Shown here piece by piece: positions 9,897 to 32,891 of a DNA stretch of 64,000 nt. This stretch comes from Blastocatellia bacterium (GTDB lineage: Bacteria > Acidobacteriota > Blastocatellia > Chloracidobacteriales > Chloracidobacteriaceae): assembly GCA_019695185.1 (NCBI GenBank), contig JAIBAN010000003.1:28501-92500 (forward strand), read 5' to 3'. How positions within the stretch are numbered: the first letter of the stretch is position 1; the number at the start of each line of letters is the position of its first letter. Position numbers and translations under genes: made by a program. The notes under the pieces were generated by a model that was not told where the DNA came from, did not search any database, and saw nothing but the letters and a program-made list of their open reading frames with translations.

Positions 9897-10751
9897 ATGC
9901 CCGAATCAGTGCAAACCGTTGCGGAAACTCCGCCTGAAGTTCAGGAAATCATTGACCGGTTGCCTGATACGTCTCAGATCTACAGCGAAGAACCGGAAGC
10001 AACCGGACTTTCGCCCGAAGTCCAGGAAATCATCAACCGGCTGCCTGACACTTCACAAGCGTACAGCGAGGAACCCGAAATGGAGAGTTCACTTCATTAC
10101 CTGCAATTGTTGTTGCTCGTGACCAGTCTTGAATGGTTATGGCGGGAGCAGGAAGACTTTTTTATTGGTGCCAACCTCAGCATTTATTTTAGTGCCAAAC
10201 AACTGAAAACACGTGACGTTCGAGGACCGGATTTCTTTCTGGTCAAAAATACGGAAAAGCGCCCCCGGAAATCATGGGTGGTATGGGAAGAGGGAGGCCA
10301 ATATCCTGATTTGATTATTGAATTACTCTCGGCTTCAACCGCCAAAACCGACCGGGAAACCAAAAAGAAACTGTACCAAAATCGGTTTCGAACCCCGGAA
10401 TATTTCTGGTTTTCACCTGAAACTCTTGAGTTCAAAGGGTTTCACTTGAAAGACGGAGCATACAAACCAATTCGGCCCAATGCACAAGGTCACCTCTGGA
10501 GCCAGGCACTGGATTTGTACCTGGGAGTCCAGGACGGCAAACTGAGGTATTTCACCAGTACCGGCCTGTTGGTTCCAACGCCGGAAGAAGCTGCAATCCA
10601 GGAAATCCACCGGGCACAGGAAGCATTCGCCCAAGCGGAACAGGAAGCCCAACGGGCGCAACAGGAAGCTCAACGGGCACAACAGGAAGCTCAACGGGCC
10701 GAAAAACTTGCTGCTCAACTGCGGGCTCTGGGAATTGAACCTGAAGCCTGA
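9897..10751 (+). CDS. Uma2-family endonuclease-like protein with duplicated N terminus
   Basis: A 284-residue member of the Uma2 (DUF820) family, a PD-(D/E)XK-type nuclease fold common in cyanobacteria and some other phyla; cellular roles are mostly unproven. Core residues are RGPDFFLV and YPDLIIELLSAS followed by KKKLYQ and PEYFWFSPE. The first 60 residues hold a tandem duplication of a unit of about 29 residues containing PEVQEIINRLPDTSQ. The C terminus is a coiled coil built on AQQEAQRAQQEAQRAE and ends LRALGIEPEA, the same tail as the Uma2 protein inside dnaE at 28223-28936. The ATG at 9897 has AGGAGG upstream. Confidence 0.85.
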   Translation: MPESVQTVAETPPEVQEIIDRLPDTSQIYSEEPEATGLSPEVQEIINRLPDTSQAYSEEPEMESSLHYLQLLLLVTSLEWLWREQEDFFIGANLSIYFSAKQLKTRDVRGPDFFLVKNTEKRPRKSWVVWEEGGQYPDLIIELLSASTAKTDRETKKKLYQNRFRTPEYFWFSPETLEFKGFHLKDGAYKPIRPNAQGHLWSQALDLYLGVQDGKLRYFTSTGLLVPTPEEAAIQEIHRAQEAFAQAEQEAQRAQQEAQRAQQEAQRAEKLAAQLRALGIEPEA

Positions 10752-26903: not shown

Positions 26904-28223
26904 CTATTGAAACGCCACTTCACAGCCGGTGCAAATCTGGCGGATTTCGGTGACCAGTTCCGGGCTGGCTTTCACCCGGACAAAACTGTTGGGGCGTACC
27001 ACCGCAATCGCCCCGGATGAAAGCTGGACTTCAAAGGTCACAGCGCATTCGCCCCGATGCCGGTCAAAGAGTCCATAAAGTCTATCCACCCGTTGCTCAT
27101 TCAATTGACCTGCCGGGAAGTACAGCTTCATGGCGGCGGCGGAACGTTCCCGCAGCCCGGCGAGCGGCACCACTTCGTCAGCAATGATTTTCGAGGGACC
27201 GTCTTCCGTAAATTCCAATTTTCCGGTCACCAGCACGGCCTGCGTATCGGAAACCCGTCCGTTGAGTTTTTTGAAGGTTTCCGGCCAGGCAATGACTTCG
27301 ATGGAACCCAGTTCGTCTTCCAGGGCAAAAACACAAAACCGGTCGCCTTTTTTGGTGGTTTTGACCACGTATCCCACCACCATGCCTCCCATTTTGACAA
27401 TCGTGCCGGGTGCATTGGAGGCCAGCGTTTCAAACGAAGCCGAGGCGAATTGATTGAGCAGTTCGCGGTATTCGGCCAGCGGGTGTCCCGTGATATAAAA
27501 CCCCACCGTGGCTTTTTCACCCGCCAGTTGTTCTGCCGGAGTCCAGTCGGCGACCTGCGGAAGCGCCGTTTCCTCGCTCGGCATGGTGGCTTCAAAAGCA
27601 CCAAAAAGCGAAACCTGCCCGCTTTGCCGGTCGCGTTGGGCGCGGGCTCCGTTTTCAATGGCACCGTCAATGGCGGCAAATTTCTGCGCCCGTGTGCCGG
27701 GAAGCGTATCCATTCCCCCTGATTTGATGAGGCTTTCCAGCACCCGCCGATTGAGCGACCGGCTGTCCACCCGTTCCGTCAGATTGTGGAGCGAGGTAAA
27801 CGGCCCCTCCTTTTCGCGGGCTGCCACAATGGCATCCACGGCAGCTTCGCCAATGCCCTTGATGGCCATCAAACCAAAACGGATTTTGTCGCTTGTCGAA
27901 GTAAACGTGTGGTAGCTGACATTCACATCCGGCGGCAGAATCTCGATTCCGGCGGCGCGGGCCCGTTCGATGTATTTGGCCACCTTGTCGGTGTTGTTCA
28001 ATTCGTTGGAAAGCACCGCCGCCCAGAAATGCGCCGGGTAATGGGCTTTCAGATAGGCCGTATGATAGGCCAGCACGCCGTAACAAACCGAGTGGCTGTT
28101 AGCCGTCAACACGCCGTTCGCAAGGTAGTTGTGGTGGGGTGCCGCCATTGTCATGTTGTAGGTCTTTTCCACCCCAACCGGCGTCACCCGTTTGATTTTG
28201 ACTTTTTCAAGGTGCATACGCAT
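26904..28223 (-). CDS. dnaE: DNA polymerase III alpha subunit, C part, with C-intein at its start
   Basis: A 439-residue protein. Residues 1-42 are the C-half of a split intein (block F-like TYNMTMAAPHHNYLANG, ending LTAN); the splice junction is Asn42/Ser43. Residues 43-439 are the rest of DnaE: SHSVCYGVLAYHTAYLKAHY, a helix-hairpin-helix (IKGIGEAAVDAIVAARE), an OB fold (about 255-330; IVKMGGMVVGYVVKTTKKGD) and the C-terminal tau-binding region. Its ATG shares one base with the stop codon of the Uma2 gene (TAATG), so translation is coupled. With the N part at 28965-32891 it supplies one complete DnaE sequence only if trans-spliced. Confidence 0.93.
   Translation of the reverse strand: MRMHLEKVKIKRVTPVGVEKTYNMTMAAPHHNYLANGVLTANSHSVCYGVLAYHTAYLKAHYPAHFWAAVLSNELNNTDKVAKYIERARAAGIEILPPDVNVSYHTFTSTSDKIRFGLMAIKGIGEAAVDAIVAAREKEGPFTSLHNLTERVDSRSLNRRVLESLIKSGGMDTLPGTRAQKFAAIDGAIENGARAQRDRQSGQVSLFGAFEATMPSEETALPQVADWTPAEQLAGEKATVGFYITGHPLAEYRELLNQFASASFETLASNAPGTIVKMGGMVVGYVVKTTKKGDRFCVFALEDELGSIEVIAWPETFKKLNGRVSDTQAVLVTGKLEFTEDGPSKIIADEVVPLAGLRERSAAAMKLYFPAGQLNEQRVDRLYGLFDRHRGECAVTFEVQLSSGAIAVVRPNSFVRVKASPELVTEIRQICTGCEVAFQ
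28098..28223 (-). other. C-intein (42 aa) of split dnaE intein
   Basis: Basic 42-residue segment starting MRMHLEKVKIKRV and ending NGVLTAN, followed by Ser+1 of the C-extein (SHSVCYG). The penultimate residue is Ala rather than the usual His, as in several cyanobacterial split DnaE inteins. Length is close to the 35-40 residues of known DnaE C-inteins. Confidence 0.93.
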
Positions 28224-28936
28224 TACATCTGTTCCGGGTCAATTCCCAAAGCCCGCAGTTTTTCCTTCAGGCGCTCATTTTCCTGTTGCGCGGCTTCCTT
28301 TGCCTGTCGTTCAACTTCGGCACGTTCACGCTCGGCTTCAACTTGTGCCAAGGCAATTTGGTGTTGAGCTTCAAGTTCCTGATAGGTCAAAAAACACCTT
28401 CCATCAGGCCGGTGAATGATAAGGGTTTCCGGAGTCCGTTCAAACCGGATGCCCAAACGCGGGCTGACCCAATCAGCCATCACCGGAATTTTTACCAATC
28501 GTTCAGTTTCCCGCAGCCAGCCCCAAATTGTGTTGGTGTCCGGGTCATAAATGTAATACTCTGCTACCCCGTGGCGCTCATAAAATGCTTCCTTGTCAAT
28601 CATTTCACGAACTGTGTTCCCAGGAGAGAGAATCTCAAACACCACCTGCGGAGCAACGCCCTCTTCTTCCCATTGTTTATAGGAACCACGATGTCCTTTG
28701 GGCCGGCCAAGTGCAACCAGCACATCCGGTGCCACCCATGTTTTAACTTGCCCGCGCACCGGATACCACAACAAGTCACCCGCCACAAAGTCATGGGGCA
28801 ACAGAGCGTCGAGCCCTTCTTTGATTGTCACAATCCATTCGAATTGTTTGGTGTTGTCGGCCATCGGTACCCCATCGCTTTCCGGATAGTATTCCGCCTC
28901 ATCAATGATTGGTGGAGATTGCGTCAATGCACCCAT
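28223..28936 (-). CDS. Uma2-family endonuclease-like protein between the split intein halves
   Basis: A 237-residue Uma2 (DUF820, PD-(D/E)XK-type) protein. Core residues: KTWVAPDVLVALGRPKG, PQVVFEILSPGN, IDKEAFYERHGVAEYYIYDP. The C terminus is a charged coiled coil ending EKLRALGIDPEQM, matching the tail of the Uma2 protein at 9897-10751. The ATG at 28936 has a GAGG-type site and lies 28 bases after the N-intein stop codon; its TAA overlaps the ATG of dnaE-C. It occupies the position where many inteins carry a homing endonuclease domain. Whether it cuts the intein-free dnaE allele is unknown. Confidence 0.88.
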   Translation of the reverse strand: MGALTQSPPIIDEAEYYPESDGVPMADNTKQFEWIVTIKEGLDALLPHDFVAGDLLWYPVRGQVKTWVAPDVLVALGRPKGHRGSYKQWEEEGVAPQVVFEILSPGNTVREMIDKEAFYERHGVAEYYIYDPDTNTIWGWLRETERLVKIPVMADWVSPRLGIRFERTPETLIIHRPDGRCFLTYQELEAQHQIALAQVEAERERAEVERQAKEAAQQENERLKEKLRALGIDPEQM

Positions 28937-28964
28937 AACTGCCTCACTTTTGATGATTGCCTGG

Positions 28965-29321
28965 TTAAACCGCCGCCCCAGCCTGTGCAGGCTGTGCGCT
29001 CTTTCCCGCCAGCGTGGTTTCACCTTCTGCTGCAATCTGCAAATCCAAACCTTTTTCCAGAATTTCCCACAACGGGAGAAATCCCTGTTCCGTGTAAAAC
29101 TTGTGGTCAAGGGTGCAACGGAGCGTCCGCCCGTCTTCCAGTTCGATTTCGACCACTTCCTTTTCGCCTGTTTCAAAAGCTTCAACGATGTCGTTGACGA
29201 AAATCTGTGAGCCGTCAAAGCTGAAGGTTTTGGTGGTGGCGACTTCCCGGCTGGCAATCTGGGACAGTGTCACCTGCGCGCCGGTTTCGGCATCGGTAAT
29301 CGGTGTGTCTCCGGTCAAGCA
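28965..29321 (-). other. N-intein (118 aa) of split dnaE intein
   Basis: Starts with Cys1 in NK/CLTGDTPITD (block A) and has block B in GRTLRCTLDHKFYT with the T-x-x-H motif. It is acidic (GEKEVVEIELEDG), matching a basic C-intein, and ends in a low-complexity Ala/Gln tail after LEKGLDLQIAAEG. Length and layout resemble cyanobacterial DnaE N-inteins. The insertion point is between Lys and Ser of the FNKSHS motif. Confidence 0.93.
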
Positions 29322-32300
29322 CTTATTAAAGGCATAATCCGCAAAGCCTTCGAGCGATTGCCAGAGCTTTTCCAGCTTGTCGCGGTCATGCCCGCGTTCC
29401 TCGGCCTGCTTGAAGAACTTGGCTTTGTGGGCGTCCAGTTCCTCGCGCTTTTTCTTGCCCATCGCGCGGCGCACAAGGTCGGCTTCACCAAGCGAATAGC
29501 CGGCCAGCCGCTGGAAGATGGCCATGATTTGTTCCTGATACGTACAGTTGTGAAGTACGATGTTATTGCCAACGAAATTGTGGATGCCTTCGACTGTAAT
29601 GTCGTAAACCAATTCAATGCCCGCTGGTTTGATTGAGGTAATCTTCTCCCAACGAATATTAAGGTTGTTTCTGGTGTGTTGAAGCAGTAAAGCTTCAGCC
29701 ACGGAACGCACAACCTGGACTGCGATTCGTGGAATTTGCTTGTTTTTGGGTCGAAAATGTTGCGGATTGAGTCCGTAAGCCCGTCCTAATCCTTTCAATG
29801 AGCCAACCCAGACTTTTGACAGTTCCTCAAAAAAGACTTGGCGCGAGACGGAGTCTTTTGATTCGACGCTTCCCAGCGGCGGAGCCGGTACAGATTTTGA
29901 GACCAAATGCGGGACGATCAAGTCCATAAATCGTGAAAGATCATAGACACTCACTTGGTAGGCAGCCGTTTCACCTTCTCGCCGATCACTTTGATAATGG
30001 GAAGTATAAATGACTGAGCAAATCCCCAAACGGAGCAACAGCGTTTGGACATCCAGGGCCAACTGTTTGGAAATGGTTTTATAGTGGTAGATTTTTTTTC
30101 CAAGATGTCCGTCACAATCCCATAACGAAGCCAGAAAGAAGGCAATACAGCGGGAATTTAACCCAAAGACGAAACCCGGAATAAATTTATTCTCAGATCG
30201 GCACCCTCCCTTTTGAAACTTCATTCCCAATTCACGTAGCCAAGCCAGCACTGAGTTTGGTTCGTGATAAAACTTTTTCTCTGTTCCGACCACACCAACT
30301 CGTGTCACACCGCGAAGCTGCTGAAGCATTCTGGCTTCAACCCGCTCAAACGCCTGCAAACAACGCTGATATTCTTTGATGAGCGCTTCGTCTTTGGATA
30401 TGAAATCACAACAGGCTGTCGAACTTAACGAACCATCCGCGATTAAGTAAGCCAGGACCCGAAGCTTTCGAAGATCATATTCTTGCTCATTGGCGACCAG
30501 AATTTGACGCGGTGTAGCAATAAAATCCCCAGGCTGCAACTCTTTCACCGATTGCCAGCCGGTTTCCGTGAGAACTTGGTGGTCATCTGTGAGTTTGACT
30601 GAGGTGCCATTGTGTAACTGCACCTCGACCACCTCACGCAAGCCGTTTGCGAAGAAGTGGGTAACTCGTGCACGACTCGGCTTTAACTCTGAATCAACCC
30701 CTTGTATGTAAAAAGCCCCTACCTTGTCTTTGAGTTCATCAATTCGATACCGATTTCCGGTAATTGCATCGAAAACTACGGTTTCCCCGGTCACACACAC
30801 ACCAAATGTGTTTCCCAGAATGTCTTTTAATTCAGGAAAATCAAACTTAACCTTTCGTCTGCCATGACGCCGTTCAATGTAATCATCCACCATTCCTGAA
30901 TCGAGCGGGCCGGGCCGATAGAGCGCATTCAAGGCAATAATGTCATCCAAACCATCAGGCTTGAGCCGCCGGGTGATTTCCTTGATGCCGTCGCCTTCAA
31001 ACTGAAAGATGGCTTCCGTTTCGCCGTCGGCAAAGAGTTTGAGCGCCGCCGGGTCGTTGAACGATACGGCGGAGAGGTCCGGAGCCTGTCCTGTTTCGCG
31101 GCGGATGTTGGTCAGACAGTCCTCGATGATGGTGAGCGTCGTCAGGCCCAGGAAGTCCATCTTGAGCATTCCGGCTTTTTCGAGGTCGTTCATGTTGTAC
31201 TGCGTCGCCAGCACCTCGATTTCCCCGCCCCGCTCCTTGTCCTTGGCCTTGGTTTTGAAGACCGGCACCAGTTCATGGACGGGTTTCGGCGAAATCACGA
31301 CTCCGGCGGCGTGAATCGAGGAATGCCGCGAACAGCCCTCCAGCCGTTGCGCCAGTTCAATCATTTCCTTGAAGCGGGGGTCTGAATCGTGGGCCTGCTT
31401 GAGTTCCGGAACGGTCTTGAGGGCCTCGGCAATCGGAACGTTGCGCCCGCGTTGCGGCGGCGGAATCATCTTGGCGATTTTTTCAACTTCCTTGTACTCG
31501 ATTTCGAGCACCCGCCCCACGTCCTTGATGGCTGCCCGCGAAGCCATCGTCCCAAAGGTGGCGATTTGCGAAACGTTTTCCCGCCCGTAGAAATTCCCCA
31601 CGTAATCAATCACTTTGCCGCGCCCGCGCACACAAAAGTCCACGTCAATATCGGGCATTGAGACGCGTTCCGGATTGAGGAACCGTTCAAAGAGCAAATC
31701 AAACTGAATCGGATCCACATCGGTGATTTTCATGGCATAGGCGACACAGCTCCCCGCAGCGGAACCCCGCCCTGGCCCAACGGGAATGCCGTTTTCCTTT
31801 GCGTAGCGGATGAAATCCCACACAATCAGAAAATAGCCGGGAAAGCCCATCTTCTTGATGGTGTCAATTTCCAGGTTGAGCCGTTCGGAATAGGTTTCAA
31901 GGGGATATTTGAGCGCCCCGGCCTCGGCCAGCGGACGCAACTGGACCATCCGCTCCTCCAGCCCCGCACGGGCCACTTTTTCAAAAAAGCTGTCGAGGGT
32001 TTCCCCTTCCGGCACCGGATAGGCGGGCAAATGGTTTTTGGCCTTGGGAAACTCAAACTGGCACATTTCAGCAATCCGCATGGTGTTGCGGAGCGCCTCC
32101 ATGTTCTGATTTTCAAACAGATGCCACATCACTTCGGCGGATTTCACGTAATGCCCCGGACTATAGTGCATCGAAGCCTGATTGATAGTTCGTCCGGTTT
32201 GCAGGCACAACAGCGCTTGATGTGCCCGAAAATCGTCTTTCGTCAAAAAATGGGCGTCGTTGGTGACCACGAGCGGAACGTTCAACTTGCGGGCGATGTC

Positions 32301-32891
32301 AGTCAACCCGGCATTTACTTTGGATTGCTGTTCCTCGAACCCGTCGTGACACTGAAGCTCCAGAAAATAATTTCCCTGCCCGAAAATTTCGTTGTACTCG
32401 CCAACTTCACAAAGTGCCTGTTCCGCTTTTTCCCGCAGGATGAGCGACGAGGGCACGCCCGACATACAGGCCGAAAGCGCCACCAGCCCTTCGCTGTGCT
32501 CGGAAAGCAACTCCTTGTCCATCCGGGGTTTGTAGTAATAGCCCTGGGTGTAGGCCAAGGAACTGAGCTTGACGAGGTTTTCATAGCCCTTCTGGCTTTT
32601 GGCCAGCAGAATCAGGTGGTTTGAACCCTTTTCGCCTTCGGTGTTGGTGCCCCGGTCATGGCGCGAACCACGTGCCACATAGGCTTCCATCCCGACAATC
32701 GGACGGACCCCGGCCTTTTTCATGGCGTTATAAAACTGCATGGCACCAAACATGTTGCCGTGGTCGGTGGCAGCCATGGCGGTAAATCCAAGCTGGGCCG
32801 CATAGTCAGCCAAGGCGTCGTGCTGGATGGCTCCGTCAAGCAGGCTGTAATCCGTATGAAGATGCAAGTGGACAAATTCTTTGCGTGACAT
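28965..32891 (-). CDS. dnaE: DNA polymerase III alpha subunit, N part, with one full intein and an N-intein
   Basis: A 1308-residue precursor. The PHP domain (1-270) keeps metal-binding motifs HLHLHTDYSLLDG and ATDHGNMFG. The polymerase active site has PDIDVDFC (about 411) and LKMDFLGL (about 577), the catalytic aspartates. After NTFGV a 417-residue intein (699-1115) interrupts the gene; the extein resumes CTYQEQIMAIFQRLAGYSLG and RRAMGKKKREE. At residue 1191, after DYAFNK, a second intein begins and the protein ends inside it at residue 1308. The rest of DnaE is encoded at 26904-28223. Removal of both inteins leaves 773 residues, to be joined to 397 more. This is the only dnaE in the window. 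Confidence 0.95.
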   Translation of the reverse strand: MSRKEFVHLHLHTDYSLLDGAIQHDALADYAAQLGFTAMAATDHGNMFGAMQFYNAMKKAGVRPIVGMEAYVARGSRHDRGTNTEGEKGSNHLILLAKSQKGYENLVKLSSLAYTQGYYYKPRMDKELLSEHSEGLVALSACMSGVPSSLILREKAEQALCEVGEYNEIFGQGNYFLELQCHDGFEEQQSKVNAGLTDIARKLNVPLVVTNDAHFLTKDDFRAHQALLCLQTGRTINQASMHYSPGHYVKSAEVMWHLFENQNMEALRNTMRIAEMCQFEFPKAKNHLPAYPVPEGETLDSFFEKVARAGLEERMVQLRPLAEAGALKYPLETYSERLNLEIDTIKKMGFPGYFLIVWDFIRYAKENGIPVGPGRGSAAGSCVAYAMKITDVDPIQFDLLFERFLNPERVSMPDIDVDFCVRGRGKVIDYVGNFYGRENVSQIATFGTMASRAAIKDVGRVLEIEYKEVEKIAKMIPPPQRGRNVPIAEALKTVPELKQAHDSDPRFKEMIELAQRLEGCSRHSSIHAAGVVISPKPVHELVPVFKTKAKDKERGGEIEVLATQYNMNDLEKAGMLKMDFLGLTTLTIIEDCLTNIRRETGQAPDLSAVSFNDPAALKLFADGETEAIFQFEGDGIKEITRRLKPDGLDDIIALNALYRPGPLDSGMVDDYIERRHGRRKVKFDFPELKDILGNTFGVCVTGETVVFDAITGNRYRIDELKDKVGAFYIQGVDSELKPSRARVTHFFANGLREVVEVQLHNGTSVKLTDDHQVLTETGWQSVKELQPGDFIATPRQILVANEQEYDLRKLRVLAYLIADGSLSSTACCDFISKDEALIKEYQRCLQAFERVEARMLQQLRGVTRVGVVGTEKKFYHEPNSVLAWLRELGMKFQKGGCRSENKFIPGFVFGLNSRCIAFFLASLWDCDGHLGKKIYHYKTISKQLALDVQTLLLRLGICSVIYTSHYQSDRREGETAAYQVSVYDLSRFMDLIVPHLVSKSVPAPPLGSVESKDSVSRQVFFEELSKVWVGSLKGLGRAYGLNPQHFRPKNKQIPRIAVQVVRSVAEALLLQHTRNNLNIRWEKITSIKPAGIELVYDITVEGIHNFVGNNIVLHNCTYQEQIMAIFQRLAGYSLGEADLVRRAMGKKKREELDAHKAKFFKQAEERGHDRDKLEKLWQSLEGFADYAFNKCLTGDTPITDAETGAQVTLSQIASREVATTKTFSFDGSQIFVNDIVEAFETGEKEVVEIELEDGRTLRCTLDHKFYTEQGFLPLWEILEKGLDLQIAAEGETTLAGKSAQPAQAGAAV
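29547..30797 (-). mobile_element. Full-length LAGLIDADG intein in dnaE (417 aa)
   Basis: Contiguous intein with Cys1 at 30797-30795 and terminal Asn at 29549-29547, followed by Cys+1. Block A is CVTGETVVFD, block B NGTSVKLTDDHQVLT, and the end is VYDITVEGIHNFVGNN then IVLHN, the usual His-Asn. Two dodecapeptide-like motifs, LAYLIADG (intein residues 115-122) and FLASLWDCDG (221-230), mark a DOD homing endonuclease; both keep an acidic residue. Base composition is visibly more AT-rich than the flanking extein, a sign of transfer. It splits the conserved FGV/CTYQEQ segment near the polymerase finger region. Confidence 0.95.

What the first reader, a model, noticed from the sequence alone, without database searches (positions are those of the whole stretch)
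26904..32891. dnaE fractured by a split intein with a Uma2 nuclease gene between the halves
Seen directly: DnaE stops inside an intein that starts with Cys1 after DYAFNK (29321). The next gene on the same strand is a Uma2 (PD-(D/E)XK-type) protein. The gene after it starts with a 42-residue C-intein ending LTAN and continues SHSVCYG, the exact DnaE continuation. Known cyanobacterial DnaE split inteins have unlinked halves, and fractured genes with a free-standing endonuclease between split halves were described from environmental, phage-like sequences with a different nuclease family. Inference: the Uma2 protein acts as, or replaced, the homing endonuclease of this intein. A link between Uma2 and inteins is, to my knowledge, not described.
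Basis: partly seen in the sequence, partly recalled or inferred. Interest (0 to 1): 0.95.

Follow-up and report, generated by a model that had tools for sequence, protein, structure and literature searches.

The report
Split DNA polymerase gene harbours nuclease
In this bacterium, probably an acidobacterium, the only gene found for the main DNA-copying enzyme is cut in two by a split intein whose protein halves are predicted to be stitched back together, and the gap holds a gene for a likely DNA-cutting protein (Uma2) where related bacteria keep a quite different, homing-type nuclease gene; other relatives carry the same intein in one piece or with its halves far apart, so together they show stages by which a split gene may arise.

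Summary
dnaE is interrupted after FADYAFNK by a 118-aa N-intein, then a Uma2 gene, then a 42-aa C-intein that runs into SHSVCYG; no second dnaE was found. The same intein at the same DnaE position was seen in 15 of 162 genomes of the class. Five of these have a free-standing LAGLIDADG endonuclease gene between the halves, one keeps only remnants of it, seven have the halves far apart, the nearest relative has one continuous mini-intein, and the window alone has Uma2. So Uma2 occupies the homing-endonuclease slot; the full LAGLIDADG gene was not found in this genome. That Uma2 acts as a homing endonuclease is not supported: it is a single case; of the Uma2 genes listed for this genome (15) and its nearest relative (50), no other lies within 15 kb of a detected intein; and its nearest paralogue sits as a lone extra gene between two genes that adjoin in a relative. 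I read it as a predicted nuclease gene that probably moved as a single gene into a gap that trans-splicing makes harmless. The wider find is a series of states of one split replicative-polymerase gene outside cyanobacteria; the open literature searched showed no report of it.

The parts
28965..32891 (-). dnaE-N: DnaE residues up to FADYAFNK, with a continuous intein inside, ending in the 118-aa N-half of the split intein
   Evidence: ORF; PHP, DNA_pol3_alpha, finger and intein domains
29547..30797 (-). intein 1: continuous 417-aa intein with LAGLIDADG_3 domain (residues 699-1115 of DnaE-N)
   Evidence: PF14890 5e-30, PF14528 1.2e-14; coordinates
28968..29321 (-). N-half of split intein 2, 118 aa, Cys1 at 29321-29319
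   Evidence: TIGR01445 stretch 1191-1267; PDB DnaE inteins; N-intein relatives in 15 of 18 genomes tried
28223..28936 (-). Uma2-family gene, 237 aa, predicted PD-(D/E)XK-type nuclease, in the slot between the dnaE halves
   Evidence: PF05685 9.1e-15; alignment A1; model pLDDT 82.6 with Uma2/DUF820-type PDB matches
28942..28945 (-). GAGG, Shine-Dalgarno-like, five bases before the Uma2 ATG
   Evidence: read from the sequence
28221..28225 (-). TAATG: Uma2 stop and dnaE-C start share one base
   Evidence: read from the sequence
28098..28223 (-). C-half of split intein 2, 42 aa, ending LTAN before Ser+1
   Evidence: C-intein conserved in 15 genomes and in 38 further C-half proteins
26904..28097 (-). 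DnaE C-terminal extein, from SHSVCYG
   Evidence: DnaE profiles and HHH_6 / OB-fold domains

Best explanation
The only dnaE found in this genome is encoded as two pieces by a split intein, with a Uma2 gene (a predicted nuclease) filling the gap where related bacteria carry a free-standing LAGLIDADG endonuclease gene, and the two DnaE pieces are predicted to be joined by protein trans-splicing. Shown by sequence: the split intein, its presence at the same DnaE position in 15 genomes, the LAGLIDADG gene in the gap of five of them, no full copy of that gene found in this genome, and Uma2 in the gap here. Inferred: an intein with its LAGLIDADG gene entered this site, the gene was lost in the window's family, and a Uma2 gene later moved in as a single gene. 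Because the halves would splice as proteins, whatever lies between them should cost little, so the gap is a permissive landing site. Uma2 is probably a passenger (a mobile or defence-type nuclease gene), not the engine of this intein. The continuous intein upstream must splice as well, so mature DnaE likely needs one cis and one trans splice.
For: No second dnaE by PF07733 or by the C-half. Same intein at the same site in 15 of 162 genomes of the class, N-half confirmed in the same 15. LAGLIDADG gene between the halves in G155, G161, G127, G130, G131, full-length in those 5 of 22 genomes tested and in no other of the 22, G000 included; predicted LAGLIDADG fold. Remnant of that gene in G156 (0 of 500 shuffles as good). 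Both dnaE halves intact and conserved against G009 (N-extein 88%, C-extein 74%). Uma2 genes abundant (15 here, 50 listed in G009) and, as listed, not otherwise within 15 kb of inteins. Single-gene mobility: the nearest paralogue (C122, 69%) lies between two genes that adjoin directly in G009, its stop overlapping the next start (TGATG), and a G009 copy lies where this genome has a different small gene.
Against: Splicing was not tested; no read data. No significant remnant of the LAGLIDADG gene in the window (161 of 2000 and 93 of 500 shuffles as good), so its former presence in this lineage is inferred from relatives. That the occupant of a homing-endonuclease slot is itself a nuclease is an odd coincidence for a mere passenger. 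The loss of the LAGLIDADG gene and the arrival of Uma2 cannot be dated: only one genome of the genus is held.
Confidence: 0.62

Rival explanations
1. Uma2 is the working homing endonuclease of this split intein: a PD-(D/E)XK-type nuclease that took over from the LAGLIDADG enzyme, cuts intein-free dnaE and so spreads the cassette.
For: It stands in the very slot of the endonuclease gene, same strand, stop overlapping the dnaE-C start as the LAGLIDADG gene's does. Its candidate active-site residues D71, E101, K115 (my assignment) are present in a conserved alignment and its model matches Uma2/DUF820 structures. A PD-(D/E)XK homing endonuclease, I-Ssp6803I, is known from an intron (cited in PMC3943268, passages read).
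Against: One case only. Of the listed Uma2 genes of G000 (15) and G009 (50) no other is within 15 kb of a detected intein. The intein of the window's family is less alike than the flanking N-extein (16 to 22 points in 4 pairs), as in plain descent. No paper found links Uma2 with inteins or homing.
Confidence: 0.2
2. Uma2 in the gap has become part of dnaE expression: overlapping stop and start couple dnaE-C translation to Uma2, so the gene is kept as a translational link or has a separate role in repair or defence.
For: TAATG overlap and a Shine-Dalgarno-like GAGG before Uma2; the gene looks intact, with saturated synonymous change against relatives (dN about 0.28-0.36).
Against: Stop-start overlap occurs in 3 of 31 placed copies and is common in operons generally (second part recalled); relatives make dnaE-C with no gene before it (G156) or from a distant locus.
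Confidence: 0.12
3. The arrangement is an assembly error.
For: Draft genome of 222 contigs; reads were not available.
Against: Both halves open and conserved; the split or fused intein is shared by 14 other genomes; the nearest Uma2 in the genome is only 69% identical, so no repeat collapse is likely; the contig is 166 kb long.
Confidence: 0.03

Closest known systems
Cyanobacterial split DnaE inteins (Ssp, Npu)
   Same: Split intein in the replicative polymerase DnaE, N-half about 100 aa and C-half about 40 aa; the N-intein's best PDB matches are DnaE inteins; unlinked halves also occur in seven relatives.
   Different: Insertion at FNK|SHS, not AEY|CFN (cyanobacterial site recalled); other phylum; linked halves with a gene between them in the window and five relatives.
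Fractured genes (Dassa et al. 2009: split inteins with a free-standing endonuclease gene between the halves; recalled, paper not held)
   Same: Same gene order: N-half, nuclease gene, C-half.
   Different: Described, as I recall, from environmental phage-like sequences with another nuclease family; here chromosomal dnaE with a LAGLIDADG gene in relatives and Uma2 in the window.
Uma2 / DUF820 (PF05685) genes
   Same: The window protein is a member by profile and predicted fold.
   Different: Position inside a split-intein gene; no such case among the 29 copies of the subfamily placed other than the window itself.
I-Ssp6803I, PD-(D/E)XK homing endonuclease of an intron
   Same: Restriction-type nuclease beside a splicing element.
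   Different: Intron, not intein; homing shown there, not here; kinship with Uma2 was not tested.

Membership tests
Split intein | N-half with Cys1 and block B Thr..His, C-half with terminal Asn before Cys/Ser/Thr, on separate ORFs (motifs recalled) | tested here: met
   CLTGDT, TLDH, LTAN|S on two ORFs; penultimate residue is Ala, as in all 15 relatives' C-inteins
Split intein | Trans-splicing activity | not testable with these tools
   Inferred from the lack of a second dnaE
Cyanobacterial split DnaE intein (same allele) | Insertion at AEY|CFN | tested here: not met
   Insertion at FNK|SHS in the window and 14 relatives; cyanobacterial site recalled
Fractured gene with free-standing endonuclease | Endonuclease gene between split-intein halves | tested here: met
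   LAGLIDADG gene in 5 relatives; in the window the gene is Uma2, a predicted nuclease whose activity is untested
Uma2 (PF05685) | Profile match over cut-off and fold | tested here: met
   55 bits against 27; 8 PDB chains at E <= 0.001, all Uma2-like or restriction-like nucleases by title or fold, TM 0.34-0.42 by query
Homing endonuclease (for the Uma2 protein) | Cuts the intein-free allele; element spreads | tested here: inconclusive
   Cutting not testable; no second case and no sign of horizontal movement in the window's family
LAGLIDADG endonuclease (for the relatives' gene) | LAGLIDADG profile and fold | tested here: met
   PF14528 1.8e-13 and 1.5e-9; model pLDDT 87.8, top PDB matches bI3 maturase 2ab5 and I-AniI 3eh8

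The most novel reading that the evidence does not exclude
Uma2 proteins are an unrecognised class of single-gene mobile nucleases able to take over the homing-endonuclease post of a split intein: here a Uma2 enzyme displaced a LAGLIDADG enzyme and now drives, or rides on, the dnaE cassette, within a family that shows how a split replicative polymerase gene is made and unmade (nuclease between the halves, nuclease deleted, halves rejoined, halves scattered).
Probability: 0.2. Interest if true: 0.92.

Novelty: new variant of a known kind. Interest (0 to 1): 0.74.

Why it matters
How an essential gene comes to be split and its halves scattered, as in cyanobacterial dnaE, has to my knowledge lacked intermediates. 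Here one class of bacteria shows several states at one residue of DnaE: a nuclease gene between the halves, that gene deleted, another nuclease gene in its place, a continuous intein, and halves far apart. The route becomes testable by comparison and by splicing assays, new natural split inteins come to hand for protein engineering, and the large, little-understood Uma2 family gets a concrete case of single-gene movement.

Tried and rejected
Remnant of the LAGLIDADG gene in the window: protein-level score reached in 161 of 2000 shuffles and 93 of 500, nucleotide scores in 195, 85 and 279 of 500: not shown. In G009: protein level 75 of 500; nucleotide level 1 of 500 against two references and 158 of 500 against the third, partly because the N-intein tail itself is alike: suggestive at most.

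Movement of the intein with its LAGLIDADG gene rests on an identity contrast only; the AU test did not reject family f9 as one clade in the intein tree (p 0.086), nor window plus G009 (p 0.454). Some pairs show little or no excess over the N-extein: G155-G130 67 against 66, G127-G130 87 against 87.

A second Uma2-in-slot case: a Uma2 protein (P0006) and a DnaE-C protein (P0204) both list a longest contig of 2216 bases, from different listed sources; their sequences look to me to belong to different lineages. I treat it as coincidence; unresolved.

Inteins beside viral relatives of the LAGLIDADG gene: of 222 loci 80 were kept; no hit at E 1 with my narrow intein models, positive control found. 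Distant inteins would be missed.

Direct repeats around the Uma2 gene: none in 28100-29060; two weak inverted pairs. Stop-start overlap as a mark of Uma2 insertion: 3 of 31 placed copies (window, 28 subfamily relatives, 2 further own copies; 11 other own loci were not placed by my query): too few. dN/dS: synonymous sites saturated or the method failed in most pairs; one ratio, 0.07, is not trusted. G056 matched from C-intein residue 4 but has an 1182-aa DnaE frame and no N-intein hit: counted as intein-free.

Errors of mine: one search used wrongly oriented loci and was replaced; two rows (G157, G158) lost 48 N-terminal residues. My note says 30 kb for the Uma2-intein distance; the nearest other Uma2 of this genome is about 18.6 kb from an intein, so the report says 15 kb. 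The statement in that note that the window copy 'keeps' the 37 invariant columns is empty, since it is one of the 52 rows. Pfam was run on a LAGLIDADG protein cut five residues short; later calls used the full gene.
Full report
What is there. On the minus strand, dnaE-N (28965-32891, 1308 aa) ends 118 residues into an intein that begins with Cys after FADYAFNK. 28 bases after its stop a Uma2 gene begins (ATG at 28936, GAGG five bases before it). Its stop shares a base with the start of dnaE-C (TAATG), which opens with 42 residues of C-intein and goes on with SHSVCYG. Domain calls agree for each part, and the best PDB relatives of the N-intein are DnaE inteins. PF07733 and dnaE-C each match once in the 8.33-Mb genome (99.73% complete), so no spare dnaE was found. 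DnaE-N also holds a continuous 417-aa LAGLIDADG intein (29547-30797).

Same site elsewhere. A class-wide search with dnaE-C (162 genomes, 149 with a match; the table is cut at its weak end) showed 15 with the C-intein in front. The N-intein query matched all 18 genomes then tried, but only those same 15 at 52% identity or more; the other three (G008, G154, G157) gave weak or extein-only matches. In a draw of 396 genomes of the phylum the N-intein passed E 1e-15 in 7, all of this class. In the 5.8-billion-protein set, 39 of 61 hits to C-intein plus DnaE start are separate C-half proteins, the window's own among them; those with an organism name are Acidobacteria or Acidobacteriota, Chloracidobacterium or Pyrinomonadaceae. 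The genome itself is unnamed; I take it as Acidobacteriota from these relatives.

What fills the gap. In G155, G161, G127, G130 and G131 it is a stand-alone gene of 268-270 aa whose start overlaps the N-intein end out of frame and whose stop overlaps the dnaE-C start. It is a LAGLIDADG protein by profile and predicted fold (bI3 maturase, I-AniI). It has 53 relatives at 52-93% identity among 67 hits; nine of these show the same longest-contig length as a C-half protein. More distant relatives are common in viral contigs (222 loci, 80 kept). G156 has lost the middle of the gene: about 18 first codons remain (0 of 500 shuffles as good) and a few last bases before dnaE-C. G009 has no stop and no gene: one 1702-aa frame with a mini-intein. 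G001 to G007 have the halves apart: 1.4 Mb along the contig in G001 and G006, 0.7 Mb in G007, separate contigs in the other four. The window alone has Uma2. A full-length LAGLIDADG gene was found in exactly the five of 22 genomes named above; G000 had no match, and seven matches elsewhere (in G006, G008, G130, G155, G156 twice, G161) are partial and weak.

Order of events. In a tree of the dnaE-C extein (33 rows: the 15 with the intein and 18 without; 116 further matched genomes were not included) the window pairs with G009 (99/96) inside a family with the seven unlinked genomes (100/100); presence and absence of the intein need four changes. In a tree of the 15 alone the pair has 91/93. Since the two other families show only split forms, the continuous form of G009 is more likely a re-joined split intein than the ancestor; this is inference. 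In the intein tree neither the window nor G009 has a supported partner. Movement: between families f9 and f6 the intein is 65-75% identical (nine pairs) while the C-extein is 40-43% and the 400 residues before the site 63-66% (three pairs); in six pairs that look vertical the intein lies 8 to 22 points below the N-extein. So copies with the LAGLIDADG gene seem to have moved between families, and the window's family looks vertical. Against this, the AU test on the intein tree did not reject one f9 clade (p 0.086), and one f9-f6 pair has 67 against 66. Intein-free f9 genomes G157, G158 and G159 read R|AHS at the site; with Ala at +1 an intein there should not splice (general knowledge).

Uma2. 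The alignment of 52 relatives has 37 invariant columns, and the candidate active-site residues D71, E101 and K115 (my assignment) are present in the window copy. The model has a confident core (mean pLDDT 82.6) and its eight PDB matches at E 0.001 or less are Uma2/DUF820-type or restriction-like proteins, TM 0.34-0.42 by query. The family is abundant: 15 genes in this genome, 50 listed in G009, which looks like a cap. Inteins by TIGR01445: six hits in each genome. Among the genes listed only the dnaE copy lies within 15 kb of one. The nearest paralogue (C122, 69%) sits between a deformylase-like and a SUMF1-like gene (my labels) that adjoin directly in G009, and its stop overlaps the next start (TGATG). 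Another copy in G009 sits where this genome has a different small gene. So this subfamily comes and goes as single genes at gene junctions, in the two places compared. Stop-start overlap with the next gene was seen in 3 of 31 placed copies. Gene neighbourhoods of eight relatives, read as ORFs only, were ordinary.

How it works, most likely. Two proteins, DnaE-N and DnaE-C, are made from one operon-like string; the intein halves pair and join them (predicted). With splicing at the protein level the DNA between the halves is free space. The LAGLIDADG gene, probably the original engine of spread, was lost in this family and a Uma2 gene took the space (inferred). Whether Uma2 cuts the intein-free site is open; its place and its fold are all that speak for it.

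Literature. Searches: Uma2 with intein (2 papers), Uma2 with homing endonuclease (1), split intein with DnaE and Acidobacteria or Chloracidobacterium (2), Chloracidobacterium with intein (2), and wider split-intein or Uma2 queries. Nothing in the listings, abstract starts and passages seen reports this arrangement; only open-licence PMC text was searched. Passages were read of PMC9403480, PMC6390638, PMC10448857 and PMC3943268; of PMC3229294 and PMC3653736 only reference-list passages. Dassa 2009 and Caspi 2003 were not held and are recalled.

Noticed in passing
window 29547-30797 (-): A second, continuous LAGLIDADG intein in the same DnaE-N; a similar one is in L002 (G161) and G009 but not in L003 or L004, so it has its own history.
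   Followed up: partly
L038 (G009): The nearest relative has the same intein as one continuous mini-intein without an endonuclease, probably a re-joined split intein.
   Followed up: partly
L106-L112 with L010-L016 (G001-G007): Seven genomes of one genus have dnaE-N and dnaE-C far apart or on different contigs, a parallel to cyanobacterial dnaE.
   Followed up: partly
G157, G158, G159 (loci L020, L021, L025): Intein-free relatives read R|AHS at the insertion site: Ala in place of the Ser+1 that splicing needs, possibly a resistant site.
   Followed up: no
window 10089-10526 (+): Another Uma2 gene in the window (G000:C7:38589-39026), a distant paralogue of the one in dnaE.
   Followed up: partly
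G000 C122:28955-29599 (L113) against G009 C3 (L221): A Uma2 gene inserted precisely between two genes that adjoin directly in the relative, its stop overlapping the next start: an empty-site pair for studying Uma2 mobility.
   Followed up: partly
G000 C7:143090-143314, C81:82823-83044, C15:37124-37264, C11:109279-109515: Four further intein N-terminal regions in this genome outside dnaE.
   Followed up: no
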